Shown here piece by piece: positions 43,962-60,838 of a DNA stretch of 64,000 bases. The notes beneath the pieces were generated by a model. The model did not search any database and was not told the origin of the DNA. It saw only the letters and a list, made by a program, of their open reading frames with translations. The first letter of the stretch is position 1, and every line of letters begins with the position of its first letter. The translations under genes were made by a program, and so were the position numbers. This DNA comes from Cupriavidus pauculus (GTDB lineage Bacteria > Pseudomonadota > Gammaproteobacteria > Burkholderiales > Burkholderiaceae). Location of the stretch: assembly GCF_008693385.1 (NCBI RefSeq), contig NZ_CP044065.1:1488001-1552000 (forward strand), given 5' to 3'.

Positions 43962-45527
43962 ATGTCTGAAATCACCGTACCCGACCTTCCCGACAACACC
44001 GTCACGCCTTCGCAGGTCGTCTTCGACGGTACACCGCTCGCGATCGAGGCGATCGTCGCGCTCGCGCGCCGCGAGGCCACGGCCGTGCTGTCCGATGCGC
44101 CGGACTTCCGCGCGCGCATCACGCGCGGTATGGCGTTTCTCGATCAGCTGCTCGAGGAAGATGGCCGCATCTATGGCGTGACGACGGGCTACGGGGACTC
44201 GTGCGAAACCGCGGTGCCCGTGGACCGCGCATGGGAACTACCCGTGCATCTGTACACGTTCCACGGCTGCGGGCTCGGGCGGCTGCTGGAAGCGGACGAG
44301 ACGCGCGCCGTGCTCGCGGCACGGCTGGCGTCGCTGTGTCAGGGTTATTCGGCGGTCAGCCCGGCGCTGCTCGAACAACTCGCCGCGTTCCTCGCGCATG
44401 ACGTGCTGCCCTGCATTCCGGCCGAAGGCTCGGTGGGCGCAAGCGGCGACCTCACGCCGCTGTCGTACGTCGCGGCCGCGTTGTGCGGCGAGCGCGAGGT
44501 CGTCTACGCGGGACGGCGCCAGCCGGCGGCCGAGGCGCTTGCGGCAATCGGCCGCGCGCCGCTGCGGCTGCGGCCCAAGGAAGCGCTGGCGATCATGAAC
44601 GGCACCGCCGTGATGACGGGCCTGGCCTGCCTCGCATGGTCGCGCGCCGCGCATCTTGCCGCGCTCTCCGCCACGCTGACCGCCGGTGCGGTCGCGGCGG
44701 TCGATGGCAATCCCTATCACTATGACGAGACGCTGTTCCGTGCCAAGCCGCATCCCGGGCAGTTGCGCGCCGCCGCGCGTATCCGCACGCTGCTCGGCGA
44801 TTCGCGCGCGCCGCGCCATGCGAGCCGTCTGCAGGACCGCTATTCGCTGCGGTGCGCGCCGCATGTCATCGGCGTGCTCGAAGACGCGCTCGACTGGTCG
44901 CGCCGATGGATCGAAACCGAGCTGAACAGCGCGAACGACAATCCGCTAGTGGATCCGGACGAGCAGCGCGTGCTGCATGGCGGCCATTTCTACGGCGGCC
45001 ATGTCGCGCTGGCCATGGATGCGCTCAAGACGGCGGTGGCCAGCGTGGCGGATCTGATGGACCGCCAGTTGGCGACGCTCGTCGATACGCGCTACAACAA
45101 TGGCCTGCCCGCGAACCTGTCGGGCGCCACCGGCGACGAGGCGCCGCTGAACCATGGGCTGAAGGCCGTGCAGATCGGCGCGTCCGCGTGGACGGCGGAG
45201 GCGTTGAAGCTGACCATGCCGGCGACCGCGTTCTCGCGCTCGACCGAGTGCCACAACCAGGACAAGGTCAGCATGGGCACGATCGCGAGCCGCGATTGCC
45301 TGCGGGTGCTGGAGCTGACGGAACAGGTGGCGGCCGCGATGCTTGTGGCCGTGCGTCAGGGCATCGGGCTACGCCTGAAGATGGGTGGTGCGCTGCCGCA
45401 GCCGCTGCAGCCGTTCTTCTCGCGGCTCGAGGCCGCGATTCCGCTGCTGACGCGGGACCGGGCCCTCGAATCCGAGCTTCGCGCGCTGCTGGCGCAGATG
45501 CGCGCGGGCCGCTGGCAGGACGCTTAA
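43962..45527 (+). CDS. Aromatic amino acid ammonia-lyase (HAL/PAL/TAL family)
   Basis: 521 residues with the Ala160-Ser161-Gly162 triad that forms the MIO cofactor (GSVGASGDLTPLSYVAAAL), catalytic Tyr71 (IYGVTTGYGD) and NNPL-type NSANDNPLVD. The residues that choose between His, Phe and Tyr fall at Phe100-His101 (HLYTFHGCGLG), not a standard TAL (HL), PAL (FL) or HAL (SH) pair. Located 3 bp after the PPTase gene, it should make the cinnamate- or coumarate-type aryl acid that primes the polyene. It is not accompanied by hutU or hutI, so histidine catabolism is unlikely. Confidence 0.88.
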   Translation: MSEITVPDLPDNTVTPSQVVFDGTPLAIEAIVALARREATAVLSDAPDFRARITRGMAFLDQLLEEDGRIYGVTTGYGDSCETAVPVDRAWELPVHLYTFHGCGLGRLLEADETRAVLAARLASLCQGYSAVSPALLEQLAAFLAHDVLPCIPAEGSVGASGDLTPLSYVAAALCGEREVVYAGRRQPAAEALAAIGRAPLRLRPKEALAIMNGTAVMTGLACLAWSRAAHLAALSATLTAGAVAAVDGNPYHYDETLFRAKPHPGQLRAAARIRTLLGDSRAPRHASRLQDRYSLRCAPHVIGVLEDALDWSRRWIETELNSANDNPLVDPDEQRVLHGGHFYGGHVALAMDALKTAVASVADLMDRQLATLVDTRYNNGLPANLSGATGDEAPLNHGLKAVQIGASAWTAEALKLTMPATAFSRSTECHNQDKVSMGTIASRDCLRVLELTEQVAAAMLVAVRQGIGLRLKMGGALPQPLQPFFSRLEAAIPLLTRDRALESELRALLAQMRAGRWQDA

Positions 45528-45746: not shown

Positions 45747-46553
45747 TCAGAACGCCGGCAGAATCGCGCCCTTGAACTGCCTGTCGAGGAAATCCTTCAC
45801 TTCCTGCGACTGATACGCCGCAACCAGCGGCTTGACCCATGGCTTGTCCTTGTCCTGCGCGCGCACCGCGATCAGGTTCGCATACGGGCCGCGCAGGTCC
45901 TCGATCGCGATGGCATCGCGCGTCGGCGACAGGTTGGCCTTGACCGCGTAATCGGTATTGATCGATGCCGCGGCGAGGTCGCTCAGCGAACGCGGCAGGA
46001 TCGCCGAGTCCAGTTCGACGAACTTGAGCTTCTTCGGATTCGAGGCGATATCGAGCGGCGTGGCGTTCTTGCCCGCGGCGGTTTTCAGCGTGATCACGCC
46101 CTTGGCCTGCAGCAGCCGCAGCGCGCGATTACCGTTCGACGGATCGTTCTGGATACCGACCTTCGCGCCTTCCGGCAGGTCCGACAGCGACTTGTACTTG
46201 CTCGAGTAGAAACCCATCGGCGCTACGTAGGTCAGGCCCACATTGACGATCTTGTAGCGGCGCGCCTCGATCTGGCTGTCGAGGAACGGCTGGTGCTGAA
46301 AGCCGTTGGCGTCGAGATCGCCGGCATCGAGCGCGGCGTTCGGCTGCGCATAGTCGTTGAACTCGACGATGCGGATGTCCAACCCATTGCGCTTGGCCAC
46401 CGTACGCACGACCTCCCAGATCTGCGCGTCCGGCCCGCTCATCGTGCCGAGGCGGACGACCTGGTCGGCGGCGAGGGCCTGCGTGGCGGTCAGCGCCGCC
46501 AGCGCGGAAACAGCGGCGGCGGTGAACAGTTGGAACAAACGGCGGCGATGCAT
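45747..46553 (-). CDS. metQ: MetQ/NlpA-family ABC substrate-binding protein
   Basis: 268 residues from the ATG at 46553 (AGGAGCC upstream). Signal peptide (LFQLFTAAAVSALAALTATQ, cleavage near LAA-DQ); no lipobox Cys, so it appears secreted rather than lipidated. Family motifs: VVRLGTMSGPDAQIWEVVRT, ALDAGDLDANGFQHQPFLD, GAKVGIQNDPSNGNRALRLL. MetQ proteins deliver D/L-methionine or related compounds to MetNI. No metN or metI is adjacent, so it is an orphan here. Confidence 0.9.
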   Translation of the reverse strand: MHRRRLFQLFTAAAVSALAALTATQALAADQVVRLGTMSGPDAQIWEVVRTVAKRNGLDIRIVEFNDYAQPNAALDAGDLDANGFQHQPFLDSQIEARRYKIVNVGLTYVAPMGFYSSKYKSLSDLPEGAKVGIQNDPSNGNRALRLLQAKGVITLKTAAGKNATPLDIASNPKKLKFVELDSAILPRSLSDLAAASINTDYAVKANLSPTRDAIAIEDLRGPYANLIAVRAQDKDKPWVKPLVAAYQSQEVKDFLDRQFKGAILPAF

Positions 46554-46677
46554 GATGGCTCCTGTAGGGCGTTGTATTGGCTCGCCCCCGCGCGGGTGGC
46601 ACGAGGGCGTCACGGATGGTAAGGACGCTTACGCCATCAGGGAATGAATAAGTTCGGCTATCGATATGCGCCGTTTG

Positions 46678-47421
46678 TCATGCGTCGATGAACGACACGA
46701 ACTCTTCCAGTTCGAGCTTCGCCAGCCGCATATTGTTCTCGGGCACGCTGTTGTCGGCGTACCCCAGCGACATTCCCGCAATCACCATCTCTCCCTCGGG
46801 AATGCCGAGCTCCCGATGGAGCACCGTCGATTGCAGCGACCAGATCTGCTGGGGACAGGTGTCCAGCCCTTCGGACCGGGCGGCGAGCATGATGTTCTGC
46901 AGGAAGCAGCCGTAGCAGAGAAAGCTCGCCCACTCCAGCCGGCGATCCATGGTGAAGATCAGTCCGACCGGCGCATCGAAGAACCGGAACTGACGCTCGA
47001 CATCGCGTCGCCGCCCGGCGATATCGCTGCGAGGCACGCCCTGCGCATCGCCGAGCATCCCCCGGAACGTACTGAAGCGCGCATCGAACGGCGCCGGCAG
47101 GTTCGTGGGAAAGAACGGGTACTGCAGCGGCAGCGTCTCCGGATTCTCCCGATAGGCGGAGACCGCCGCCTCGGTGACGCGTTCACGAGCATGCCCCGTG
47201 ACCACGTAGCAACGCCAGGGCTGCGTATTGCTCGAGCTCGGCGCATGACTCGCCGCCGACAGGATGCCCCGTACCGTGGCCAGCGGGACGGGAGTATCGA
47301 GAAAGGCCCGCTTGCTGCGGCGCTCGCGCATCGTCGCCGCCACCAGTGCCGCCACGAGTGCCGCCGCATTGCCTGCCGACGCGACCGCCCCAATCTGCTT
47401 GTCCATCTCCATCATCTCCAT
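46678..47421 (-). CDS. Nitroreductase-family flavoprotein
   Basis: 247 residues. FMN-binding nitroreductase features: RERRSKRAFLDTPVPLATVR, ASHAPSSSNTQPWRCYVVTG and, near the C-terminus, GMSLGYADNSVPENN. The N-terminus MEMMEMDKQIGAVASAGNAA is variable with several possible ATGs; the first has TGGAGAG at suitable spacing. Members reduce nitroaromatics, quinones or enones with NAD(P)H. It is divergent from the maleylacetate reductase gene, so a link with the aromatic catabolic locus is possible. Confidence 0.88.
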   Translation of the reverse strand: MEMMEMDKQIGAVASAGNAAALVAALVAATMRERRSKRAFLDTPVPLATVRGILSAASHAPSSSNTQPWRCYVVTGHARERVTEAAVSAYRENPETLPLQYPFFPTNLPAPFDARFSTFRGMLGDAQGVPRSDIAGRRRDVERQFRFFDAPVGLIFTMDRRLEWASFLCYGCFLQNIMLAARSEGLDTCPQQIWSLQSTVLHRELGIPEGEMVIAGMSLGYADNSVPENNMRLAKLELEEFVSFIDA

Positions 47422-47692
47422 GGCATTACTCTCCAGTCGTGGTTGTCAGTGTGGTTGTGATTTCGCTTGTGCGTCTGGAGAAAAATCATAGACACATGGC
47501 ACGCGCTGAACAGATGGCAATGCTTGCATCCTGCGTCCAACATCCCTGAACGATGCACCGCCCCTGTGCCTGATGACGAGTGTAGTCGCGGCGTCCAGAT
47601 TCCTGAACGATATGTTCGCGAAAGCGGCGCGCACGGCCGAATCGGGATGCCCTATCTTGTCTCCGACACACATGGCACGAGGAGACGCCAAG
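47422..47692. promoter_or_regulatory. Divergent promoter region
   Basis: 271 bp between the nitroreductase and maleylacetate reductase genes. CCTGAACGAT occurs twice in the same orientation (about 57 bp apart, near 47546 and 47602), a possible regulator half-site pair. GAGGAG precedes the ATG at 47693. Confidence 0.3.
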
Positions 47693-48820
47693 ATGGACCA
47701 GTTGAAATGCCTGCCGCAGGATCATGTCGTGTGGGGACACGACATCCTGCGGCCCGTGGCCGCGTCGCTCGGCGACTATGGCCTGCGCCGCCCGATCGTC
47801 CTGACCGTGAACTTTTTGGAGGCGCTGCATCGCGCGTATCTCGCGCCCGCCATCGCGGACTGCGTCGGCGTATTCACGGGATTGCCCGCCCATGTGCCCG
47901 ACTTTGCCGTGGACGCGGCGTTGCGCGCATGCCGCGACGCGCGCGCGGAGTCCATCGTCGCGCTCGGGGGTGGCTCCGTGCTCGACGCCGCAAAGGCAGT
48001 GTCGGCGCGCCACTTCGCGGAGACGGGCCACCATCTGCCCATTGCCGCATTTCCGACGACGCTGTCCGGCTCCGAGTTCTCGCATTACTTCGGCGTGACG
48101 GAGACGGACGGCCCGCGCAAGTTCAAGCGCAGCTACGCCGTGCGGGAGACCGTGCCGAAGCTCGTCACGATCGACCCCCAGTTGATCGTCGACACCCCGC
48201 GCGAACTGCTGCTGAGCTCGGCGATCAAGGGCATCGATCATGCGATGGAAGGCATGCGCCGCGTCGGCACCGATCATCCGCACGCGATGCTCGCGGCGCG
48301 CGGCGTGGCGCGCTTTCTGGGCGTGCTGGAGCGATGGCCGAAACGCCTCGACACGCGCGCGGCGCTCGAGGCCGGCAACGTCTCGATGGACGATCTGCTG
48401 CAGCTCCAGCTCGGCGCCTGGCAGTGCTACTTCTATCCGGCGTCGGTCATCTACGGGCTCAGCCATCGCATCGGGCATATCCTCGGTGGCACGTTCGGCC
48501 TGCCCCATAGCGTGACGTCCTGCATCACGCTCGCCCCGGTGATTCGCGCATGCGCGGAAATCTACGGCGACAAGCTCGATATCTTCCGCACTTCGGCGAC
48601 CGGGGCGACCCGCGATACTACGGCGGAATGGCTGGCCGACCTCATCGCCGGACTGGTCGATACGCTCGATCTGCCAAGCCGGCTGCGCGGCTTCGAGATC
48701 CCGCGCGGCACGCTGCGCGAGGTCGCCTCGATGCTGGCGGAACACTACCCGGCGGAAGTGGGCGATCTTGGCGACGACGCCGCGCGCAAGCTGGAAGCGC
48801 TGCTGGAGGGCATGTGGTGA
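47693..48820 (+). CDS. Maleylacetate reductase (Fe-ADH family)
   Basis: 375 residues from the ATG at 47693 (GAGGAG upstream). Iron-containing alcohol dehydrogenase fold of the maleylacetate reductase branch: VALGGGSVLDAAKAVSA (NAD site), AFPTTLSGSEFSHYFGVT, ELLLSSAIKGIDHAMEG and SHRIGHILGGTFGLPHSVT. It reduces maleylacetate, or chloromaleylacetate with loss of chloride, to 3-oxoadipate, the exit of hydroquinone and chlorohydroquinone pathways (LinF/PcpE role). With the ring-cleavage dioxygenase at 52879 it gives a complete quinol-to-oxoadipate route. Stop overlaps the amidase start (TGATG). Confidence 0.88.
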   Translation: MDQLKCLPQDHVVWGHDILRPVAASLGDYGLRRPIVLTVNFLEALHRAYLAPAIADCVGVFTGLPAHVPDFAVDAALRACRDARAESIVALGGGSVLDAAKAVSARHFAETGHHLPIAAFPTTLSGSEFSHYFGVTETDGPRKFKRSYAVRETVPKLVTIDPQLIVDTPRELLLSSAIKGIDHAMEGMRRVGTDHPHAMLAARGVARFLGVLERWPKRLDTRAALEAGNVSMDDLLQLQLGAWQCYFYPASVIYGLSHRIGHILGGTFGLPHSVTSCITLAPVIRACAEIYGDKLDIFRTSATGATRDTTAEWLADLIAGLVDTLDLPSRLRGFEIPRGTLREVASMLAEHYPAEVGDLGDDAARKLEALLEGMW

Positions 48821-50187
48821 TGCGCGCGAACCCTGCATTGCCCGCCCCGGCCGACAGTCTGCGCGGGCTCCGCCACGCGCTCGTCACGCGCGAGATCACG
48901 GCCGTGGCACTGACGGAGCGTACGCTGCAAGCCGCGGAGGCGAGCCGGCAGGCCGTCAACGCGTTCGCCGCCATCGACTGGGACCGCGCGCTGCGGGCGG
49001 CCGCTGAAAGCGATCGCCGCTATGCCAATGGCACCGCGCGCGCGCTCGAAGGCCTGCCCATCGCGGTGAAGGATCTGATCGATACGCGCGGGATCGACAC
49101 CTGCTACGGCTCGTCCGCATACCTCGGTCATCGTCCCGCTGTCGATGCCGATGTCGTCCACGCGCTCGTGGACCGCGGCGCCATCGTCGTGGGCAAGACC
49201 ACCACGCACGAGTTCGCATGGGGCGTCACCACGTCGAGCGCGTACTTCGGCGACACGCGCAACCCGCTGGATCCGTCTCGTATTCCCGGCGGATCGAGCG
49301 GCGGCGCGGCCGCCGCCATCGCGCACGGCGCCGTGCCGGCGGGCCTGGGCACGGACACCGGCGGCTCCGTGCGTATTCCGGCCGCACTATGCGGCGTGGC
49401 CGGATTCAAGCCGACACACGATGCCCTGTCGACACGCGGCGTTTTTCCGCTCGCGCCCAGCTGCGACCACCTCGGCCTGCTCGGCCGCCACGTGGACGAT
49501 GTGCTCTGGCTCGCCAACGCGCTCCATATCGACGTGCCGGAAAGCGATGCATGGCTGTCCGCGCGGATCGGCGTCGTGCGCGAGATCGCGCCCGTGCCGC
49601 TCGCCCCCGACGTCGCCACGGCGTTCGATGCGGCCATGCAACGCCTCGCGCGCACGTTCGCCTGCATCGATATCGGCGCGCCCCGGCTGTTCGCGGGCGT
49701 CTTCGACGCCTTCGCGGCCATCGTGCTCGTGGAAGGCGGCATCGAACACTTCCGGCGCAACGGGTGGGATCGCATTGCAGCGCACTACGGTGCGGAAACG
49801 ATGGACCGCCTTCGCCGCGCGGAGCGTACGGACCTGCGCACGTATGGCGTCGCGCAGGACGTCCGCCGAGCCTTCACGGCACGCCTTCGCGACGCGATGG
49901 CCGGGGTGGACTACCTCGTACTGCCGACGTGTCCCTGCACGGCGCCGTCGCTTGGCGCCAGCGACGTGCGCATCGGCGAGTGGACCGGCACGGTCCGGGA
50001 GGCCCTCATGACATACACGGCGCCATTCAATATCGCGGGATTCCCCGCGATCTCCGTGCCGTTGCCGGCCGCAACCGGTGTGCTGCCGGCGGCATTACAG
50101 ATCGTCGCGCGGCCTGGCGACGACGGCGCGCTGCTCCAGATTGCCCAGCAGATCGAAACGCTGCTGGGCGAACGCATCGCCGCATGA
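48820..50187 (+). CDS. Amidase signature-family hydrolase
   Basis: 455 residues with the Ser-cisSer-Lys triad: Lys in GLPIAVKDLIDTRGID, the Ser-rich loop RIPGGSSGGAAAAIAHGAVP and GLGTDTGGSVRIPAALCGVA. ATG overlaps the previous stop, with GGAGGG upstream. Hydrolyses an amide (or releases an aromatic amine or acid from one). Placed between maleylacetate reductase and the TDO-family gene, it probably processes an amide-bearing substrate or intermediate of the locus, possibly the product of the TDO-like enzyme. Confidence 0.9.
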   Translation: MRANPALPAPADSLRGLRHALVTREITAVALTERTLQAAEASRQAVNAFAAIDWDRALRAAAESDRRYANGTARALEGLPIAVKDLIDTRGIDTCYGSSAYLGHRPAVDADVVHALVDRGAIVVGKTTTHEFAWGVTTSSAYFGDTRNPLDPSRIPGGSSGGAAAAIAHGAVPAGLGTDTGGSVRIPAALCGVAGFKPTHDALSTRGVFPLAPSCDHLGLLGRHVDDVLWLANALHIDVPESDAWLSARIGVVREIAPVPLAPDVATAFDAAMQRLARTFACIDIGAPRLFAGVFDAFAAIVLVEGGIEHFRRNGWDRIAAHYGAETMDRLRRAERTDLRTYGVAQDVRRAFTARLRDAMAGVDYLVLPTCPCTAPSLGASDVRIGEWTGTVREALMTYTAPFNIAGFPAISVPLPAATGVLPAALQIVARPGDDGALLQIAQQIETLLGERIAA

Positions 50188-50214
50188 CCACACCCCACCA
50201 GAGAGGAGAGCACG

Positions 50215-51096
50215 ATGAGCGAATCCGCATCCCCCGGCATCACACCGTCGGGACAGACCCCATACAGCGCGTGGATACAGACCGACGTGCTGCACACGCT
50301 GCAGACGCCCGTCAGCGACCATCCCGGCGAGCATGCATGGATTACCTCCGTACAGGTGTCCGAGCTTTACTGGATGCTGATCGTCCGCGAAATCCAGACC
50401 GCCCAGCAGCAACTGCGGCGCAACCAACTGTCCGGCGCCATCGAGACCCTGCGGCGCATCGTGGCCCACCACGAGCCGCTCAATACGACGTGGAAGTCCA
50501 TCGCATGGATGACGCCGGCCGATCTGCTGGCGATCCTGTCGCGCGCGGTGGCGAAGTATGGCAAGGACACGGCCTTGCAGGGATGGACGTATCGACAGAT
50601 GGTGTATTTGTTCGGCATCCGGCAGGCCGAGCATCTCCAGCACTTCGAGCCGCAGCCGGAACGCTGGCAGCAGCTGAATCAGGTGCTGGACACGCCTAGC
50701 CTCTATGACGATGTGCTGATGGCCCTCGATCGCGCGGGATTCGCGATACCGGCGCACGTGCGGGAGCGCGATTATCGCCAGCCCTATGCGCCGGACAAGG
50801 CCGTGGAGCGCGCGTGGCGCGACATCTATGCCGATGCCGGCGGGCATGTCCAGTTGCGAGGGCTCGGGGAAACGCTGGCCGACATCACGGAAGGATTCCT
50901 GGCCTGGAAGCACCTGCACCTGATGGCCACGCGCCGCACGTTCGGCCATCGCCCGGCGTACTTCGGCACCGAAGGCATCGCGTGGCTGCTGCCGACGATG
51001 GAAGAACTGCCGTTTCCCGAACTGTGGACCGCGCGCGGGATCATCGGCGACCCACCGGCCGGCTGCCCCATGCACAAGCCAGCGGGGCGCGCATGA
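50215..51096 (+). CDS. Tryptophan 2,3-dioxygenase-family heme protein
   Basis: 293 residues aligned over most of the TDO family: YSAWIQTDVLHTLQTPVSDH, VQVSELYWMLIVREIQTAQQ, TPSLYDDVLMALDRAGFAIP, and the heme region AWKHLHLMATRRTFGHRPAY with the likely proximal ligand His235. In TDO the distal His (His55 of Xanthomonas) precedes QVSEL; here that position is Val46. The carboxylate-binding Arg appears kept as Arg127 (TYRQMV). The protein ends GCPMHKPAGRA, a Cys-Pro heme-type motif. It probably oxygenates something other than tryptophan; no kynurenine genes are near. AGAGGAG precedes the ATG, and its stop overlaps the GST gene. Confidence 0.85.
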   Translation: MSESASPGITPSGQTPYSAWIQTDVLHTLQTPVSDHPGEHAWITSVQVSELYWMLIVREIQTAQQQLRRNQLSGAIETLRRIVAHHEPLNTTWKSIAWMTPADLLAILSRAVAKYGKDTALQGWTYRQMVYLFGIRQAEHLQHFEPQPERWQQLNQVLDTPSLYDDVLMALDRAGFAIPAHVRERDYRQPYAPDKAVERAWRDIYADAGGHVQLRGLGETLADITEGFLAWKHLHLMATRRTFGHRPAYFGTEGIAWLLPTMEELPFPELWTARGIIGDPPAGCPMHKPAGRA

Positions 51097-52163
51097 CGAT
51101 CGACGATCTGATGACGCTCGCGGCCGGCGCACGGGCCGCCATGGCGGATCCACGGCGATCCCATCTCGTGGGCGGCGCAACGGCACCCCATTCGCTTCAG
51201 AACTCGCCACCGCGCTTCGAACTATTCCACGCGGCCAGTTCGCTGTGTTCGCAGAAAGTGCGCACGGTCCTCGCGGAGAAGGCGTTGCCCTATCGTTCCA
51301 ACGACATGATGATCCTGAGCGCGATCCAGGGCGATCGCATCGTGCCGGCCGAACACTATTCGCCCGCCTACGTCAGGCTGCGCCTCCACGCCGGCCGCGA
51401 AATTGGCAAGCCGTTCGTCGATCGCTATACGGGGCGCACGTCGGTGGAGACCGAGGGGTTCGACCCGTGCGTCGTCCCGTTGCTGATCGACTACGAAGCC
51501 GGCCGCGTGATCGCGGACTCGCTGCGCATCTGCAGTTATCTCGATGGCTTGTCGCCCGCCCCGGTTCGGCTGATACCGGACGACGGCGCGGCACGCGATG
51601 CCGTGATGCGGCAGGCGGGTATCGTCGACCGCATTCCCAATGGCGCGCTGCTCTATGGCTTTCACCCGGACGCCGACCGTCGCCCCGCGGCACTCCGCGC
51701 GGTGATGGAAACCGTGTACGACGCCAAGATCCTCGCGCTGGAAGCGATGATCGATGCCAATGCCGACGATGCGGGACTGGCCGACGCCTATCGCGCCAAG
51801 ATCCTCAAGGAGCGCGGCGGCAAGGCCGTATCCCACGACGCGCGCTTCCAGCGCCAGACGCGCGAGCACGTCGCGGCGCTGCTGCGCGATCTGGAATGTA
51901 CGCTACCCAGCGCGGGCGCACCGTGGGTGACGGGGGCGAATTTCTCGCTGGCCGACGTGTTCTGGGGCGTCAACCTGACGCGGCTCGCGTATCTGGGGCT
52001 GGCCTCGATGTGGAACGATCTGCCTCTCGTGGCACGGTATGTCGAGGCGCTGGTGCGGCGGCCTTCCATCGCCGAGGAAGTCGTGCAGGCCACCATCGAA
52101 TCGCTGCCCCCCTCCGCGTATATGGATGTGCTGACGGGCGGGACCCGCATGACGCTTGCATGA
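51093..52163 (+). CDS. LinD-like glutathione S-transferase
   Basis: 356 residues, the unusual length of LinD-type reductive dehalogenases rather than the 200-230 of normal GSTs. Recalled LinD features present: RFELFHAASSLCSQKVRTVL with Ser50 and Cys52 at the PcpC Ser11/Cys13 positions, RTSVETEGFDPCVVPLLIDY, GRVIADSLRICSYLDGL and the C-terminal APWVTGANFSLADVFWGVNL. Such enzymes dechlorinate chlorohydroquinones with two glutathiones or isomerise maleyl compounds. It follows the TDO-like gene (ATGA overlap) and ends at a strong terminator. It could alternatively be a glutathionyl-hydroquinone enzyme. Confidence 0.83.
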   Translation: MTIDDLMTLAAGARAAMADPRRSHLVGGATAPHSLQNSPPRFELFHAASSLCSQKVRTVLAEKALPYRSNDMMILSAIQGDRIVPAEHYSPAYVRLRLHAGREIGKPFVDRYTGRTSVETEGFDPCVVPLLIDYEAGRVIADSLRICSYLDGLSPAPVRLIPDDGAARDAVMRQAGIVDRIPNGALLYGFHPDADRRPAALRAVMETVYDAKILALEAMIDANADDAGLADAYRAKILKERGGKAVSHDARFQRQTREHVAALLRDLECTLPSAGAPWVTGANFSLADVFWGVNLTRLAYLGLASMWNDLPLVARYVEALVRRPSIAEEVVQATIESLPPSAYMDVLTGGTRMTLA

Positions 52164-52182
52164 GCGATCGCGGGACGTAAAA

Positions 52183-52206
52183 AAGGGGCGCCACGTGGCG
52201 CCCCTT
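52183..52206. terminator. Bidirectional terminator, 24-bp palindrome
   Basis: A perfect 24-bp palindrome centred on CACGTG (AAGGGGCGCCAC and its complement) is flanked by an A-run on the left and a T-rich end on the right. It sits between the convergent GST and quinone reductase genes and can terminate both. Confidence 0.85.
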
Positions 52207-52224
52207 CTTCATAGGCCAGCGCAA

Positions 52225-52851
52225 TCAGGCGGCGACCGCCTCCGGCGCGCCATGCAGCGAGCGCGCGACTTCCGCGACCCGGCGGCCCTGGAAGCGCGCC
52301 ACCGCAAGCTGGTCCTCGTCGGGCATCAACGAATCCTGACGCGACACGTGCGTGGCGCCATACGGGGTGCCGGCCTTGAACATCGCGGCATCGGCATAGC
52401 CGAGCGGCACGATGATCAGACCCAGATGGGCCATCGGCGCGTAAATCGACAACAGCGTCGATTCGTTGCCCCCGTGCATCGACGACGTCGAGCCGAACAC
52501 CGATCCGATCTTGCCGTTGAGCTTCCCCTGGAACCACAGTCCGCCGAGTCCGTCGATAAAGGCCTTCAATTCCGAAGATATGGATCCGAAGCGCGTGGGC
52601 GTGCCGAACACGATCGCATCGGCCCATTCGACATCGGCCTCGGTCGGCGCTTCGTATTTTGCGTTCATCGCCGTGGCATTCTCGAGCCAGCCCGGCACCT
52701 GCCGCATGACCTCGGGGCCGACGAGCTCGCGCACGCGCCGCAGGCGCACCTCCGCGCCCGCCGCCAGCGCGCCCTCCGCGACGGCTCTGGCAAGCGCCTC
52801 CGTCGAGTGGTTACGCGAATAGAACGGGATTAGTACTTTCGTTTTCGACAT
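52225..52851 (-). CDS. wrbA: NAD(P)H:quinone oxidoreductase, WrbA type
   Basis: 208-residue flavodoxin-like protein from the ATG at 52851 (MSKTKVLIPFYSRNHSTEAL). FMN motifs: YSRNHSTEALA, FGTPTRFGSISSELKAFID and FGSTSSMHGGNESTL. WrbA enzymes reduce benzoquinones to hydroquinones by two electrons, avoiding semiquinone radicals. Directly downstream (27 bp) of the hydroquinone-cleaving dioxygenase, it would keep the aromatic pool reduced for ring cleavage, the role of a PcpD-like reductase. Confidence 0.92.
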   Translation of the reverse strand: MSKTKVLIPFYSRNHSTEALARAVAEGALAAGAEVRLRRVRELVGPEVMRQVPGWLENATAMNAKYEAPTEADVEWADAIVFGTPTRFGSISSELKAFIDGLGGLWFQGKLNGKIGSVFGSTSSMHGGNESTLLSIYAPMAHLGLIIVPLGYADAAMFKAGTPYGATHVSRQDSLMPDEDQLAVARFQGRRVAEVARSLHGAPEAVAA

Positions 52852-52878
52852 ATCAATTTCCAACGCACCAGAAAGGGG

Positions 52879-53829
52879 TTATACGGCAATGGGTTCGAGG
52901 CGGGACAGCAGTTCGTCCTTGCGTTCGGCGAGCCACGGCGGCAGCTGGAATTCCTCGCCGAAGTGGCCGGGCGGCTCGTCGATCGCGAAGCCGATATCGG
53001 TCGTGGCCGCTTCGAAAATCACCCCGCCGGGCATCTTGAAGTACATCGAACGGAAGTAGTTGCGGTTCACGGACTCCGACGTGTCGATGTAGCCGAGCCC
53101 CATGAACTTGTCCTTGAGCGTCATCTGCTCCGCCTCGCTGTCCACGGCGAACGCCACATGGTGGATCGTGCCTTCGCCATAGACGGAGGAGCCCTGCAGG
53201 CGGTCCGGTTCGTGAAAGAACTCGACGACCATGCCGGGGCCGCCCGTGTGGGTCTCGAAGCGGTAGTACGGGCCCGACTCGCCCGCCAGGCGAAAGCCGA
53301 TGGCCTCGCTCATGAATCGCACGGACTCGGCGACCTCGCGCAGCGACAGCGTGATGCTGTGCACGCCGCGCACCGCGTACGCCTGCGGCACGTTGTTCTC
53401 CACGCAGGCCGGACGCTTGTCGAGATCGGTCTCGACGAGGTCGAACTCGATGCCGCACGGATGGTAGAAGCGCTGGCGCCGCTCGTCGAAGCGCTCGACG
53501 ATATCGGCGTCGTAGCGGATGTTCATGGCATCGAAGCGGTGGCGCCAGAACTCGAGGGAGCCGCGCGGGACCGAGTAGTTGATCACGCGCACCTGCCCCG
53601 AACCGGGGCGCGCCATCACGCCGCGCTGGCGGAACGGGAACGACGTGACCAGGGTACCGGCATCGCCGTTGGCATTGCCGTAGTAGAGGTGATAGATCGG
53701 GTCCTCGCCATCGAGCAACACGGTCTTCTTGACGAGGCTCTGGCCGAGCAGCTTCACGTAGAAATCCACGTCCTCCTGGGCATGCCGGACGCCCGCAGTC
53801 AGGTGGTGGAATCCCTTGATTATCGACAT
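52879..53829 (-). CDS. Hydroquinone ring-cleavage dioxygenase, PcpA/LinE-like
   Basis: 316 residues from the ATG at 53829 (GGAGAAG upstream; a GTG 12 bp earlier is weaker). Two vicinal-oxygen-chelate modules: IKGFHHLTAGVRHAQEDVDF and TIHHVAFAVDSEAEQMTLKD. The Fe(II) ligands His8, His224 and Glu273 (GGVIFEAATTD) have the same spacing as I recall for PcpA (His11, His227, Glu276). It opens hydroquinones between a hydroxylated and a neighbouring carbon to give maleylacetate or its acyl halide. Transcribed with wrbA and divergent from the LysR gene. Confidence 0.88.
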   Translation of the reverse strand: MSIIKGFHHLTAGVRHAQEDVDFYVKLLGQSLVKKTVLLDGEDPIYHLYYGNANGDAGTLVTSFPFRQRGVMARPGSGQVRVINYSVPRGSLEFWRHRFDAMNIRYDADIVERFDERRQRFYHPCGIEFDLVETDLDKRPACVENNVPQAYAVRGVHSITLSLREVAESVRFMSEAIGFRLAGESGPYYRFETHTGGPGMVVEFFHEPDRLQGSSVYGEGTIHHVAFAVDSEAEQMTLKDKFMGLGYIDTSESVNRNYFRSMYFKMPGGVIFEAATTDIGFAIDEPPGHFGEEFQLPPWLAERKDELLSRLEPIAV

Positions 53830-53938
53830 TGTCTTCTCCACATTGAGTACGTCGCACAGAGACAGCCACCGGGCTCTCTCCTTTGCAACAGCTTAAGCAC
53901 TGGTGTGTATTTGGGAAGCATCGGAACGTGTACGCACG

Positions 53939-53955
53939 GTTCGGGAAAGCCGAAC
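53939..53955. promoter_or_regulatory. LysR-type operator between dioxygenase and lysR
   Basis: GTTCGG-GAAAG-CCGAAC, perfect 6-bp arms containing T-N11-A (TCGGGAAAGCCGA), lies in the 201-bp divergent gap about 75 bp before the LysR gene and 110 bp from the dioxygenase. This is the expected place for the recognition site of the adjacent LysR. Confidence 0.5.
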
Positions 53956-54030
53956 GATCGACCAAGGTTTTTCCCGATGCGTCCCGCGCGCGCGTGAAGT
54001 AAGATCGGTTCATCCACTCCCATAAAAGCC

Positions 54031-54942
54031 ATGCTGGATCTGAAGGACGTCTACTTCTTCGTGCAGGTCGTCGACCGCGGTGGCTTCACTTCGGCCGGCG
54101 AGATGCTTCGCCTGCCGAAATCCACGCTCAGCCATCGCGTGAAGGAACTTGAAGCCTCGCTCGGCGTGCGGCTGATCAACCGGACCTCGCGCCAGTTCGC
54201 GATGACCGAGGTCGGCATGGAGTTCTATCAGTACGCGATGGCGCTGCTGCGCAGCGCGGAGGTGGCCGAGGAGGCGATGCGGCAGCGGCTCGCGGAACCG
54301 AGTGGCGTGATCCGCGTGACGACAGCTGCGGAGATCGCCCAGTTCGCGCTACGCCATGTATTGCCGACGTTCCTGTCCGACAATCCCAAGGTCAGGATCG
54401 TGGAGACCGCGACCGATCGGGTGCTCGATATCGTGGGCGACGGCTTCGACCTCGCGATTCGCGGCCATACGGGGCAGTTGCAGGACTCCAACCTCGTGCA
54501 GCATCCGCTGGCGCGTGCGCCGTGGTACCTGTTCGCGGGCGCGGAGTATCTGCAGCGGATGCCCGCACCCCGCACGCCGGAGGAAATCGCCGCGCATGCG
54601 ACGATCGCCCTGTCGGGCAAGGGCGCACAGCAATGGAATCTGCAGGGTCCCGACAAGCGCACGGTGTCGATTCCCGTGGACCCGCGCTTTCAGAGCAACA
54701 GCCTGATCTCGCTGAAGGAGGCCGCGTGCGCGAATATCGGCATCGCGGCTTTGCCGGGCTATATCTGCCAGGCCGAGCTCAAGGCCGGCGAGCTACGGCA
54801 GGTCCTGCCGGAATGGATTGCCGCCGACGCGCGCATCACGGCGTTGATTCCTTACCGTACCGGGCTGCTGCCCGCCGTACGTACGCTCGTGGATTATCTG
54901 GCGGTGGTGTTGCCGAAGGTGACGGCATTCGACCGGAGCTAG
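54031..54942 (+). CDS. LysR-family regulator of the hydroquinone locus
   Basis: 303 residues. MLDLKDVYFFVQVVDRGGFT and LRLPKSTLSHRVKELEASLG form the HTH; the effector domain includes SGVIRVTTAAEIAQFALRHV and FDLAIRGHTGQLQDSNLVQH. The MLDLKDVYFFVQVVDRGGFT start resembles LinR/PcpR-type regulators. Divergent from the dioxygenase-wrbA pair with a clear LysR dyad between them. It may also control the convergent maleylacetate reductase operon. Confidence 0.88.
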   Translation: MLDLKDVYFFVQVVDRGGFTSAGEMLRLPKSTLSHRVKELEASLGVRLINRTSRQFAMTEVGMEFYQYAMALLRSAEVAEEAMRQRLAEPSGVIRVTTAAEIAQFALRHVLPTFLSDNPKVRIVETATDRVLDIVGDGFDLAIRGHTGQLQDSNLVQHPLARAPWYLFAGAEYLQRMPAPRTPEEIAAHATIALSGKGAQQWNLQGPDKRTVSIPVDPRFQSNSLISLKEAACANIGIAALPGYICQAELKAGELRQVLPEWIAADARITALIPYRTGLLPAVRTLVDYLAVVLPKVTAFDRS

Positions 54943-55042: not shown

Positions 55043-55441
55043 ATGATGTTCCACCGCTTTCTCATCGGCTCGGCCGGATCCGATAGCGTGCAGGAAGTGC
55101 ATCTGATTCGCGCGCTGCCGCAGGACTGGGCGTGCCTCGCCCGCATCGATACGGGCATCCAGTCGCTGCGCGAGACCCGCCGCGATATCCCGCCCTACCT
55201 GCTGATCCACGATCGCGACTGGCAGCAGGCGTCGTTCCAGCCGGACAAGCTTATCCGCACCGCGCGCAAGTTCTCCTATGACTCGGTCAGCGAATTCGTC
55301 GATCTGCATCTGCGGCAGACCTTCCACGAGCACGCGCTCGCGGTATTGTCGCCCGCGTGGAATCCGACCGGCGTGACGCGCGCCATCACGCGCGCCGTGG
55401 CGCCGTCAGCCCGCCGCCGCCGCGCGCGCGTCGCGGCGTAG
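55043..55441 (+). CDS. Hypothetical protein
   Basis: 132 residues from the ATG at 55043, with GGAG 8 nt before it; a longer frame from 54989 lacks a site. Sequence: MMFHRFLIGSAGSDSVQEVH, PPYLLIHDRDWQQASFQPDK, LHLRQTFHEHALAVLSPAWN, with an Arg-rich tail. No signal peptide or membrane segment and no family I recognise. Its last 36 bp overlap the convergent GlxA-type regulator, so the Arg-rich tail may merely reflect that overlap. Confidence 0.6.
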   Translation: MMFHRFLIGSAGSDSVQEVHLIRALPQDWACLARIDTGIQSLRETRRDIPPYLLIHDRDWQQASFQPDKLIRTARKFSYDSVSEFVDLHLRQTFHEHALAVLSPAWNPTGVTRAITRAVAPSARRRRARVAA

Positions 55442-56356
55442 CGTTTGCGGAGACTCGCCAAAGGCGCGCTGGAAGGCCTCGCGCAGATGGCCCCGGTCCC
55501 GGAACCCCGTCTCGCGGGCAATCACTTCGAGCGAATGGCGGCCCCGTTCCACGAGATTGCGGGCCGTCTCGATACGGATGCGCTCGATCGCCCGCGCCGG
55601 CGACTCGCCGGTCTCCGCCTGGAACACGCGCTGGAACTGCCGCGTGCTCAGGTGCGCGGCATGTGCGAGATCGGCAACCCGTAGCGGCTTGCCGAGGTTC
55701 TGGCGCACGAACTCGAGCGCGACCTGCACCTTGTCCGACTTCGGTGCAAGCTTGAGCATCTCCGAATGCTGCGTTTGCCCGCCCGCGCGGCGGTGGTGCA
55801 TGACGAGCACGTGGGCCACCCGGTTCGCGACCTCGTGACCGAGGTCCTTCTCGACGATGCCGAGCGCGAGGTCCATCGCGGCCGTCAGGCCGGCCGAGGT
55901 CCAGATCGCGCCATCGACGATGAAAATGCGGTCGGCGTCCACTTTCGCCAGCGGGCAGCGCTGCTTCAATGCCTCCGCGAAGGCCCAGTGCGTGGTGGCG
56001 CGCCGGTTGTCGAGCACGCCCGCATCGCCGAGCGCGAAGGCGCCCGTGCACATGCCGACCACGCGGCGCGCGCGAACCGACGCTTCATGGATAAATGCCG
56101 CTTCGTCCGGATGCGTGGGGCGTCCGGTCGGATCGACGATCCCGCTGATCATCCAGGTGTCGGCATCGTCGATATTCGCCGGCAGCGTGCCGACCGACGC
56201 GCCGACCGACGAGCGCACCTCGCCGCCAGCCATCGAGTAATTGGTAACCTGATAGACGGGCTCGCGCGCGACGACGTTGGCGAACTCGAACACCGACTGC
56301 GTGCCCAGGGCCATCACCTGAAAGCCTTCCGTCAGCAAATACCCAATCCGATGCAT
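55406..56356 (-). CDS. GlxA-type AraC regulator (DJ-1/PfpI + HTH)
   Basis: 316 residues. N-terminal glutamine-amidotransferase-like DJ-1/PfpI domain (about 1-190: MHRIGYLLTEGFQVMALGTQ, VVGMCTGAFALGDAGVLDN with the nucleophile-elbow Cys), C-terminal AraC double HTH (LRVADLAHAAHLSTRQFQRV, SLEVIARETGFRDRGHLREA). GlxA/FtrA-type regulators often control amino acid, carnitine or betaine metabolism. Target unknown; it stands alone, divergent from the kinase-like gene. Confidence 0.9.
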   Translation of the reverse strand: MHRIGYLLTEGFQVMALGTQSVFEFANVVAREPVYQVTNYSMAGGEVRSSVGASVGTLPANIDDADTWMISGIVDPTGRPTHPDEAAFIHEASVRARRVVGMCTGAFALGDAGVLDNRRATTHWAFAEALKQRCPLAKVDADRIFIVDGAIWTSAGLTAAMDLALGIVEKDLGHEVANRVAHVLVMHHRRAGGQTQHSEMLKLAPKSDKVQVALEFVRQNLGKPLRVADLAHAAHLSTRQFQRVFQAETGESPARAIERIRIETARNLVERGRHSLEVIARETGFRDRGHLREAFQRAFGESPQTLRRDARAAAAG

Positions 56357-59122: not shown

Positions 59123-60838
59123 ATGCAGACACACGAACTCGACTACGACATCGTCGTCATCGGCGGCGGCACGGCCGGCCCCATGGCGGCGATCAAGGCC
59201 AAGCAGCGCAATCCGGCGCTGCGCGTGCTGCTGCTCGACAAGGCGCACGTCAAGCGCAGCGGCGCCATCTCCATGGGGATGGACGGCCTGAACAACGCCG
59301 TGATCCCCGGCCACGCGACGCCGGAGCAGTACACGAAGGAGATCACGGTCGCCAACGACGGCATCGTGAACCAGGCCACCGTGCTCGCGTACGCGCGGCA
59401 CAGCTTCCGCACGATCGAGGAACTCGACCGCTGGGGCGTGAAGTTCGAGCGCGACGAAACGGGCGACTACGCCGTCCGCAAGGTCCATCACATGGGCGCC
59501 TATGTACTGCCGATGCCGGAAGGCCACGACGTCAAGAAGGTGCTCTATCGGCAACTGAAGCGCGCACGTGTCGAGGTCACCAACCGGATCGTCGCCACGC
59601 GGCTGCTGACGGGCCCCGCCGGCGAGGCCGCGGGCGTGATGGGGTTCGACTGCCGTACCGCGGATTTCCACGTGATACGCGCAAAAGCGGTCATCCTCTG
59701 CTGCGGCGCCGCGGGCCGCCTCGGCCTGCCCGCATCGGGCTACCTGATGGGCACGTACGAGAACCCGACCAATGCCGGCGACGGGTACGCCATGGCCTAT
59801 CACGCGGGGGCCGAACTGGCCAACCTCGAATGCTTCCAGATCAATCCGCTGATCAAGGACTACAACGGTCCCGCGTGCGCGTACGTCACGGGCCCGCTGG
59901 GCGGCTATACCGCGAACGGCAAGGGCGAACGGTTCATCGAGTGCGATTACTGGAGCGGCCAGATGATGTGGGAGTTCTATCAGGAACTCCAGAGCGGAAA
60001 TGGGCCAGTGTTCCTCAAGCTCGATCACCTCGCGGAAGAAACGATACAGAACATCGAGACGATCCTGCATACGAACGAGCGTCCGAGCCGCGGGCGCTTC
60101 CACGCGCGGCGCGGCAACGATTACCGCAAGCGCATGATCGAGATGCATATCTCGGAGATCGGCTTCTGCAGCGGCCATAGCGCTTCGGGCGTGTGGGTGA
60201 ACGAGCATGCGGCGACGTCCGTGCCGGGGCTGTACGCCGCGGGCGACATGGCCGCGGTACCGCACAACTACATGCTCGGTGCGTTCACCTACGGCTGGTT
60301 CGCCGGCGAGCAGGCCGCCGAGCGTGCCAGTGGCGGCGCCCTGCCCGCCATCGATCGCGCGCAGGTCGAAGCCGAACGCACACGCGTGCATGCGCCGTTG
60401 CATCGCGCGCACGGCCTGCCGCCCTCGCAGGTCGAGTACAAGCTGCGACGCTTCGTGAACGACTACCTGCAGCCGCCGAAGGTCACGCGGCGCATGGAGA
60501 TCGGGCTGCAGCGCTTTGCCGAAATCCGGGAGGACGTCGCGCAGTTGTCGGCCGCCAATCCGCACGAGCTGATGCGCGCGGCCGAGGTCTCCGTGATTCT
60601 CGACTGCGCGGAAATGGCGGCGCGCGCGTCGCTGTTCCGCACGGAGAGCCGCTGGGGCCTGTACCACTACCGCATCGACCATCCCGTACGCAATGACGAG
60701 GAATGGTTCTGCCATACGCATCTGAAGAAGGGCGAAGACGGCGCGATGACGTCGTTCAAGCGCCCCGTCGAACCGTACCTCGTGCCGCTCGACGCGAACG
60801 AACGCACCGCCTACTCGCGCCTGCGGGTCGCGGCCTAG
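59123..60838 (+). CDS. AprA/fumarate reductase-type flavoprotein
   Basis: 571 residues. FAD-binding N-terminus (YDIVVIGGGTAGPMAAIKAK), substrate-domain and second FAD blocks (GYLMGTYENPTNAGDGYAMA, PGLYAAGDMAAVPHNYMLGA, FTYGWFAGEQAAE). It belongs to the fumarate reductase/succinate dehydrogenase flavoprotein superfamily, and its pairing with a two-cluster ferredoxin is as in adenylylsulfate reductase AprAB. No sulfate-activation gene is near, so an AprA-like oxidoreductase of unknown substrate, supplied by the ABC importer downstream, is the safer reading. CAGGA precedes the ATG. Confidence 0.85.
   Translation: MQTHELDYDIVVIGGGTAGPMAAIKAKQRNPALRVLLLDKAHVKRSGAISMGMDGLNNAVIPGHATPEQYTKEITVANDGIVNQATVLAYARHSFRTIEELDRWGVKFERDETGDYAVRKVHHMGAYVLPMPEGHDVKKVLYRQLKRARVEVTNRIVATRLLTGPAGEAAGVMGFDCRTADFHVIRAKAVILCCGAAGRLGLPASGYLMGTYENPTNAGDGYAMAYHAGAELANLECFQINPLIKDYNGPACAYVTGPLGGYTANGKGERFIECDYWSGQMMWEFYQELQSGNGPVFLKLDHLAEETIQNIETILHTNERPSRGRFHARRGNDYRKRMIEMHISEIGFCSGHSASGVWVNEHAATSVPGLYAAGDMAAVPHNYMLGAFTYGWFAGEQAAERASGGALPAIDRAQVEAERTRVHAPLHRAHGLPPSQVEYKLRRFVNDYLQPPKVTRRMEIGLQRFAEIREDVAQLSAANPHELMRAAEVSVILDCAEMAARASLFRTESRWGLYHYRIDHPVRNDEEWFCHTHLKKGEDGAMTSFKRPVEPYLVPLDANERTAYSRLRVAA

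What the first reader, a model, noticed from the sequence alone, without database searches (positions are those of the whole stretch)
47693..54942. Hydroquinone catabolic locus built from LinD/LinE/LinF-like enzymes plus a TDO-family protein
Within 7 kb lie a maleylacetate reductase, an amidase, a TDO-family heme protein, a 356-residue LinD-like GST, a quinone reductase, a PcpA/LinE-like dioxygenase with intact ligand spacing, and a LysR. Quinone reductase, then ring-cleavage dioxygenase, then maleylacetate reductase gives a full route from benzoquinone or hydroquinone to 3-oxoadipate, with the GST as possible dechlorinase or isomerase. The amidase and TDO-like protein are not part of the known lindane or pentachlorophenol pathways. 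They suggest an upstream amide- or indole-like substrate and possibly an undescribed pathway.
Basis: partly seen in the sequence, partly recalled or inferred. Interest (0 to 1): 0.75.

Follow-up and report, generated by a model that had tools for sequence, protein, structure and literature searches.

The report
Nitrophenol-degradation cluster with orphan heme protein
This is a soil bacterium's gene cluster of a known type for breaking down nitrophenols through aminohydroquinone; its one unexplained gene, for an altered relative of the tryptophan-cleaving heme enzyme, travels with the cluster nearly everywhere it was looked for and probably has a job in the pathway that has not been assigned.

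Summary
The seven genes are real; an eighth, a nitroreductase (46678-47421), lies just outside the given span. The set matches the published mnp (meta-nitrophenol) cluster of Cupriavidus: MnpA nitroreductase, MnpC dioxygenase, MnpD LinD-like GST, MnpE amidase, MnpF maleylacetate reductase, MnpR LysR (PMC5604080). So the amidase most likely acts after ring cleavage, on the amide made from aminohydroquinone; no upstream amide or indole substrate is needed. What remains is the TDO-like protein, which that paper does not mention. It keeps the heme-ligand histidine but lacks TDO's distal histidine in all 121 aligned rows. Among 249 family genomes it occurs in the same 11 as the MnpC-type dioxygenase, within 5 kb. 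It sits in a tight MAR-AMI-TDO-GST operon; a conserved dyad (CGTYCA-N6-TGRACG) precedes the operon and a detached TDO-GST pair in C. necator A5-1. One published step (hydroxylaminophenol to aminohydroquinone) has no gene in the cluster; one gene has no step. I propose that the TDO-like protein forms aminohydroquinone, as mutase or hydroxylase (about 0.4, untested). The published mutase MnpB, encoded elsewhere, argues against this. New member of a known kind, with one apparently overlooked component.

The parts
   Evidence: PF00881 E 1.3e-33; 71% to the C. pinatubonensis HN-2 nitroreductase; present in 38 of 40 loci
47534..47552 (.). imperfect second copy of the dyad (CGTCCA, 7-base spacer, TGAACG)
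   Evidence: located
47592..47609 (.). operator-like dyad CGTCCAGATTCCTGAACG, about 100 bases before MAR; putative MnpR site
   Evidence: the one exact match in the window (which also lists 3 one-mismatch matches; about 1 match of either kind expected by chance)
47693..48820 (+). maleylacetate reductase, MnpF-like (375 aa), first gene of the operon
   Evidence: PF00465 E 1.3e-21; 62-78% in relatives
48820..50187 (+). amidase, MnpE-like (455 aa); start overlaps the MAR stop (TGATG)
   Evidence: PF01425 E 3.9e-94; junction read; K84, GGSSGG and GGSVRIP blocks invariant in 38 of 38 rows, window included
50215..51096 (+). TDO-like heme protein of unassigned role (293 aa), 27 bases after AMI
   Evidence: TIGR03036 225.3 bits against a cut-off of 390.7; TDO fold; residues
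51093..52163 (+). LinD/MnpD-like glutathione S-transferase (356 aa); ATGA overlap with the TDO-like gene
   Evidence: 41% to linD of Sphingobium
52225..52851 (-). WrbA-type NAD(P)H:quinone oxidoreductase (208 aa)
   Evidence: NF002999 194.7 bits, cut-off 141
52879..53841 (-). aminohydroquinone/hydroquinone dioxygenase, MnpC/LinE/PcpA-like; alternative ATG start at 53829
   Evidence: 4huz E 2.9e-67; ligands H13, H228, E277 invariant in 37 of 37 rows; 81% to HN-2
53939..53955 (.). dyad GTTCGGGAAAGCCGAAC between dioxygenase and LysR; the same pattern lies in this interval in 5 other clusters
   Evidence: weak on its own: 17 of 100 shuffles of the window also had a match
54031..54942 (+). LysR-type regulator, MnpR-like (303 aa)
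   Evidence: PF03466/PF00126; 67-92% in relatives

Best explanation
The locus is an mnp-type catabolic cluster for a meta-nitrophenol-like compound. Nitroreductase makes the hydroxylaminophenol. This becomes aminohydroquinone, which the WrbA protein may keep reduced. The MnpC-type dioxygenase cleaves the ring beside the amino-bearing carbon and leaves an amide. The amidase releases ammonia to give maleylacetate, and maleylacetate reductase gives 3-oxoadipate. The LinD-like GST is an accessory that removes chlorine from chlorinated analogues. The LysR protein controls the divergent operons. Shown here: gene content, conserved residues, synteny, operon structure and a shared operator-like dyad. 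Inferred from homology: every reaction. The TDO-like protein is a heme protein (by homology) that no longer has the TDO active site. Its most likely role, about 0.4 and untested, is to form aminohydroquinone, either by rearranging hydroxylaminophenol (a mutase) or by hydroxylating an aminophenol. The confidence below is for the pathway identity, not for the TDO-like step.
For: Pathway: the published mnp cluster has the same families; C. pinatubonensis HN-2, of the same species as the model degrader JMP134, carries all eight genes, TDO-like included. TDO-like gene belongs: same 11 of 249 genomes as the MnpC-type dioxygenase, 1.0-4.7 kb apart; operon overlaps; 40 loci, 15 arrangements; a dyad within 2 mismatches before MAR in 24 of 24 and AMI in 11 of 11 leader regions (one AMI row is an artefact, so 10 of 10), against 42 of 685 shuffled regions, and a perfect copy before a detached TDO-GST pair in C. 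necator A5-1, whose 9.7 Mb genome has 3 exact sites. Kept without a close nitroreductase or this GST in Variovorax J2P1-59, so it goes with the ring-cleavage genes. Distal histidine absent in 121 of 121 rows.
Against: The published mutase is MnpB, encoded on another contig and induced 38- and 53-fold; I recall, not from a call, that the purified JMP134 mutase was colourless, needed no cofactor and resembled glutamine synthetase. The own genome has two glutamine-synthetase-family genes. No activity of any protein of this locus is known. The nitroreductase is 71-75% to HN-2's, so the true substrate may differ. The dyad is found before few detached TDO or GST genes (2 of 7, 3 of 16). In two Rhizobium plasmids the TDO-GST pair is 14-18 kb from the nearest other cluster gene, and in two others nitroreductase, LysR and WrbA occur without it.
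Confidence: 0.85

Rival explanations
1. The TDO-like protein is a heme enzyme for another step: oxidative clearance of side products (aminobenzoquinone, phenoxazinone-like dimers or glutathione adducts), working with the LinD-like GST. The rest of the pathway is as in the best explanation.
For: TDO-GST is a tight pair: ATGA overlap, a detached pair with its own dyad in C. necator A5-1, a pair apart from the other genes in two rhizobia; 14 of 22 plasmid records with a LinD-like GST also hold a TDO-like gene, the other 8 being annotated lindane linD.
Against: TDO-like genes persist with no such GST found anywhere in two genomes (E limit 1e-20), so the GST is not an obligate partner.
Confidence: 0.3
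2. Upstream indole or anilide pathway: the TDO-like enzyme opens an indole and the amidase removes the acyl group.
For: TDO fold and amidase are neighbours in one operon.
Against: The distal His and the GTGGS loop of TDO are replaced in the 121 rows (one gap in the loop); the amidase has a place in the mnp cluster; the nitroreductase is in the set.
Confidence: 0.05
3. The locus serves a natural aminohydroquinone-type or nitro compound of soil or plants rather than, or as well as, man-made nitrophenol. This does not exclude the best explanation for the steps.
For: Spread in soil, root and nodule bacteria, including a Sinorhizobium symbiotic plasmid; one set keeps the ring-cleavage genes without a close nitroreductase.
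Against: No natural substrate is named by any search; the published inducers are nitrophenols.
Confidence: 0.4
4. Chance grouping of unrelated catabolic genes.
For: None found.
Confidence: 0.01

Closest known systems
mnp cluster of Cupriavidus pinatubonensis JMP134 and Cupriavidus sp. CNP-8 (3-nitrophenol, 2-chloro-5-nitrophenol)
   Same: Nitroreductase, LinE-like dioxygenase, LinD-like GST, amidase, maleylacetate reductase and LysR; the JMP134-species strain HN-2 also has the TDO-like and WrbA genes in the block
   Different: Other gene order; 64-81% identity per protein to HN-2. The CNP-8 paper's text has no 'tryptophan', 'heme' or 'wrbA'; its Figure 4A and the deposited cluster could not be seen
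Tryptophan 2,3-dioxygenase (CmTDO 2nox, XcTDO) and the heme-dependent aromatic oxygenase superfamily
   Different: Distal His55 is V/A/C/G/M and GTGGS is rebuilt; about 30% identity to the genome's separate ordinary TDO
Lindane LinD/LinE/LinF and pentachlorophenol PcpA enzymes
   Same: Dioxygenase 40% to LinE with PcpA's metal ligands; GST 41% to LinD
   Different: The set includes nitroreductase, amidase and TDO-like protein, and the substrate most likely carries nitrogen
Comamonas testosteroni CNB-1 plasmid (chloronitrobenzene degradation, as I recall)
   Same: Nitroreductase 65-67% identical
   Different: No match to the TDO-like or other cluster genes in the 25 kb read; a small hydrophobic protein nearby, which I recall as the CnbB mutase

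Membership tests
mnp (meta-nitrophenol/aminohydroquinone) cluster | MnpA-type nitroreductase | tested here: met
   46678-47421, 71% to HN-2; JMP134's own sequence was not to hand
mnp (meta-nitrophenol/aminohydroquinone) cluster | LinE-like dioxygenase MnpC with its metal ligands | tested here: met
   81% to HN-2, H13/H228/E277
mnp (meta-nitrophenol/aminohydroquinone) cluster | MnpD GST, MnpE amidase, MnpF maleylacetate reductase, MnpR LysR | tested here: met
   66, 65, 64 and 76% to HN-2
mnp (meta-nitrophenol/aminohydroquinone) cluster | 3-hydroxylaminophenol mutase MnpB elsewhere in the genome | tested here: inconclusive
   Two glutamine-synthetase-family genes present; the MnpB sequence was not to hand
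mnp (meta-nitrophenol/aminohydroquinone) cluster | Growth on, and induction by, nitrophenols | not testable with these tools
   Needs the strain
Tryptophan 2,3-dioxygenase (TIGR03036) | Score over the curated cut-off | tested here: not met
   225.3 against 390.7 bits; it does pass the broader PF03301 (91.2 against 34.9)
Tryptophan 2,3-dioxygenase (TIGR03036) | Distal histidine (His55 in XcTDO) | tested here: not met
   V 97, A 17, C 5, G 1, M 1 of 121 rows; His in the genome's ordinary TDO
Tryptophan 2,3-dioxygenase (TIGR03036) | GTGGS loop near the substrate's amino group | tested here: not met
   A248-Y249-F250-G251 here; Y249 in 120 of 121 rows, one gap
Heme-dependent aromatic oxygenase superfamily | Helical fold and histidine heme ligand | tested here: met
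Heme-dependent aromatic oxygenase superfamily | Heme bound and oxygen activated | not testable with these tools
   Needs purified protein
Lindane pathway (lin) | LinD/LinE-type enzymes for chlorohydroquinones | tested here: inconclusive
   40-41% identity only; substrate range not testable here

The most novel reading that the evidence does not exclude
The TDO-like subfamily without distal histidine is the cluster's own hydroxylaminophenol mutase: a heme enzyme that binds the arylhydroxylamine nitrogen at the iron, helps the N-O bond to break and adds water at the ring, an enzymatic Bamberger rearrangement on a dioxygenase scaffold. The glutamine-synthetase-like MnpB (so recalled) would then be a secondary or misassigned activity.
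Probability: 0.22. Interest if true: 0.8.

Novelty: new member of a known kind. Interest (0 to 1): 0.5.

Why it matters
The pathway itself is known. What the comparison adds is that a characterised pollutant pathway seems to have a conserved component that the one cluster paper I could read leaves out: a heme protein related to TDO, with a rebuilt active site, as constant in the family genomes as the ring-cleaving enzyme. If it forms aminohydroquinone, it would explain the one step with no gene in the cluster and add a new reaction to a heme superfamily known, as far as the papers seen here say, mainly for oxygenations. Either way a single deletion in JMP134 would test it.

Tried and rejected
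Order-wide scan (399 genomes): only the own genome rang for either protein, so it adds nothing beyond the family scan. Nitroreductase as obligate partner of the TDO-like gene: dropped, because Variovorax J2P1-59 has no close one (best 37%). GST as obligate partner: dropped. An indole or anilide role: see rivals. A membrane-type hydroxylaminobenzene mutase elsewhere: the small CNB-1 protein found nothing at E 0.01 in the own genome nor at 0.001 in 39 genomes behind the loci (L017 left out as it lies in the same genome as L012); its identity as CnbB is recalled, neither Pfam nor NCBIfam names it, and the only positive control is itself, so this is weak. A model of the pocket with heme was not made.

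Papers: searches (listings and abstract starts seen; one search was for the heme superfamily, 77 for CNB-1) showed no paper linking a TDO-like gene to this cluster; searches returned nothing. Four JMP134 papers looked up by DOI are not held (Schenzle 1999; Yin and Zhou 2010; Perez-Pantoja 2008; Yin 2010), so a mention there is not excluded. PMC4636328: passages only.

Limits of the counts: the 121 rows are the window plus the best 120 listed of 212 hits, one of them (P0001) listed at 100% identity to the window. In one search the AMI row of L046 is an artefact of a contig edge; regions before divergent genes overlap, relatives are not independent, and shuffles were of single bases. There the dyad is within 2 mismatches in 2 of 7 TDO, 3 of 16 GST, 19 of 31 NTR, 0 of 17 HQD and 0 of 30 LysR leaders. 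In one search exact dyads against the reversed-pattern control were: own 6/4, A5-1 3/5, C. pauculus 8/4, Variovorax J2P1-59 10/0, HN-2 5/1, C. campinensis 1/1, so most single sites elsewhere may be chance. In one search pairwise-distance correlations of TDO-like with the other seven proteins were 0.41 (AMI) to 0.75 (NTR) over 31 members, not specific to one partner.
Full report
WHAT IS THERE. The window lies in a 7.06 Mb, three-contig genome; the nearest relatives are Cupriavidus. The four plus-strand genes form a tight operon: the reductase stop and the amidase start overlap (TGATG), the TDO-like gene starts 27 bases after the amidase, and its stop overlaps the GST start (ATGA). Quinone reductase and dioxygenase form a second, minus-strand unit divergent from the LysR gene.

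WHAT IT IS. PMC5604080 (outline, passages, and sections 3 and 24 read) describes the mnp cluster of Cupriavidus sp. CNP-8, found by comparison with JMP134: MnpA nitroreductase, MnpC LinE-like aminohydroquinone dioxygenase, MnpD GST with 40% identity to LinD, MnpE amidase, MnpF maleylacetate reductase and MnpR LysR, with the mutase MnpB on another contig. Its text holds no 'tryptophan', 'heme' or 'wrbA'; its figure could not be seen. C. pinatubonensis HN-2, the same species as JMP134, carries all of these in one block, TDO-like and WrbA genes included, in the order GST, TDO-like, amidase, reductase, LysR, nitroreductase, dioxygenase, WrbA. The JMP134 genome paper (PMC2842291, passages) names Reut_C5979 as a GST-type dehalogenase and Reut_C5984 as a nitroreductase, which fits that order if the block is the same; I did not have the JMP134 sequence. 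Identities of the window's proteins to HN-2 are 64-81%.

HOW IT PROBABLY WORKS. The CNP-8 paper proposes cleavage of aminohydroquinone between C1 and C2 to 6-amino-4-hydroxy-6-oxohexa-2,4-dienoic acid, an amide, and reports ammonium release from both nitrophenols. An amidase is then what the pathway needs next, giving maleylacetate for the reductase. That is inference from the paper's chemistry; in the text I read MnpE is named by BLAST only. The dioxygenase here keeps the three ligands and the nearby Arg260 and Tyr267 in 37 of 37 rows, and the amidase keeps its lysine and serine blocks in 38 of 38 (window included, short rows left out).

IS THE SET REAL. A search of GTDB genomes with the TDO-like protein gave 40 loci in Cupriavidus, Paraburkholderia, Variovorax, Pseudomonas, Massilia and one Burkholderiaceae strain without genus. 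At the thresholds, nitroreductase, reductase, dioxygenase and LysR are in 38 of 40, amidase, GST and WrbA in 37 of 40; L016, L046 and L031 lose genes at an end of the stretch held, and L012 is the detached pair. Gene order differs: 15 arrangements, partial ones included, the commonest with 10 loci. These loci were found by the TDO-like protein, so a second test was made without that bias: of 249 genomes of the family, 11 hold a TDO-like protein of 66% identity or more and 11 hold a dioxygenase of 81% or more. They are the same 11 genomes, all of the window's genus (11 of 30 there, 0 of 219 others), with the two genes 1.0 to 4.7 kb apart. The next-best matches listed are ordinary TDOs of 33% or less and dioxygenases of 43% or less. 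On plasmids, 14 of 22 records with a LinD-like GST also hold a TDO-like gene, and the other 8 are annotated linD; 16 of 19 with an MnpA-like nitroreductase of 60% or more hold one, the exceptions being two Rhizobium plasmids and Comamonas CNB-1.

REGULATION. Leader regions of the clusters share a dyad, CGTYCA-N6-TGRACG. It lies within two mismatches in 24 of 24 MAR leaders and 11 of 11 AMI leaders (10 of 10 without an artefact row), 19 of 31 NTR, 2 of 7 TDO, 3 of 16 GST, 0 of 17 HQD and 0 of 30 LysR, against 42 of 685 shuffled regions. Leaders of divergent genes overlap and the species are related, so these are not independent. The strongest case is C. necator A5-1: a second TDO-GST pair, 1.44 Mb from the cluster with the main nitroreductase copy (and about 0.2 Mb from a second, 71% nitroreductase copy), has an exact copy 161 bases upstream, in a genome with three exact copies in 9.7 Mb (five for the reversed control pattern). 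By my arithmetic, after the fact, the chance of one of three falling within 300 bases of that gene is about 1 in 10,000. In Variovorax J2P1-59 a second amidase copy also has the site. The window has one exact copy, at 47592-47609.

WHAT THE TDO-LIKE PROTEIN MAY DO. The published route has one step with no gene in the cluster (hydroxylaminophenol to aminohydroquinone), and the cluster has one gene with no published step. Variovorax J2P1-59 shows no close nitroreductase (best 37%) and no LinD-like GST (E limit 1e-20) in its genome yet keeps the TDO-like gene with the ring-cleavage genes, which fits a role next to aminohydroquinone. Two Rhizobium plasmids whose stretch lacks dioxygenase, reductase and amidase also lack the TDO-GST pair there, although they keep nitroreductase, LysR and WrbA, and neither plasmid is among the 22 with the GST. 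Against this stands the published MnpB, induced 38- and 53-fold, and my recollection that the purified mutase was colourless and glutamine-synthetase-like. I therefore put about 0.4 on an aminohydroquinone-forming role, 0.22 of it on a heme mutase, and 0.3 on a role in side-product clearance with the GST.

VERDICT. The pathway is known, so the locus is a new member of a known kind. The part worth following is the conserved, unassigned heme protein. I found no paper that gives it a role; the searches are listed under Tried and rejected, and the main subscription papers were not available.

Noticed in passing
window 43962-45527 (+): Aromatic amino acid lyase (PF00221, 527 bits) near a MetQ/NlpA lipoprotein gene at 45747-46613; among the 40 loci only one weak match (32%) turned up, so probably not part of the cluster.
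   Followed up: partly
L058 (Sinorhizobium medicae pSymA): An mnp-like set with TDO-like gene on a symbiotic plasmid typed as conjugative; its LinD-like GST gene lies in two annotated pieces in this strain.
   Followed up: partly
L065 29919-35147 (Rhizobium sp. BG4): The TDO-GST pair, apart from the other cluster genes, follows an Rrf2 regulator, a DUF1971 protein, a flavohemoglobin-like gene and a gene resembling the carboxymuconolactone-decarboxylase-family gene of L059.
   Followed up: no
L017 and L061, just after the TDO-like gene: A C-terminal remnant of the GST follows the TDO-like gene, while a full copy sits elsewhere (beside the amidase in L061, in the detached pair in A5-1), as if the GST had been duplicated and the old copy lost.
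   Followed up: no
L075 6130-7608 (Variovorax sp. J2P1-59): A second cluster-type amidase gene (65%) with its own exact dyad, on another contig.
   Followed up: no
window 55409-56356 (-) and 59123-60838 (+): An AraC/DJ-1-type regulator and a fumarate-reductase-like FAD protein downstream of the cluster, apparently unrelated.
   Followed up: no
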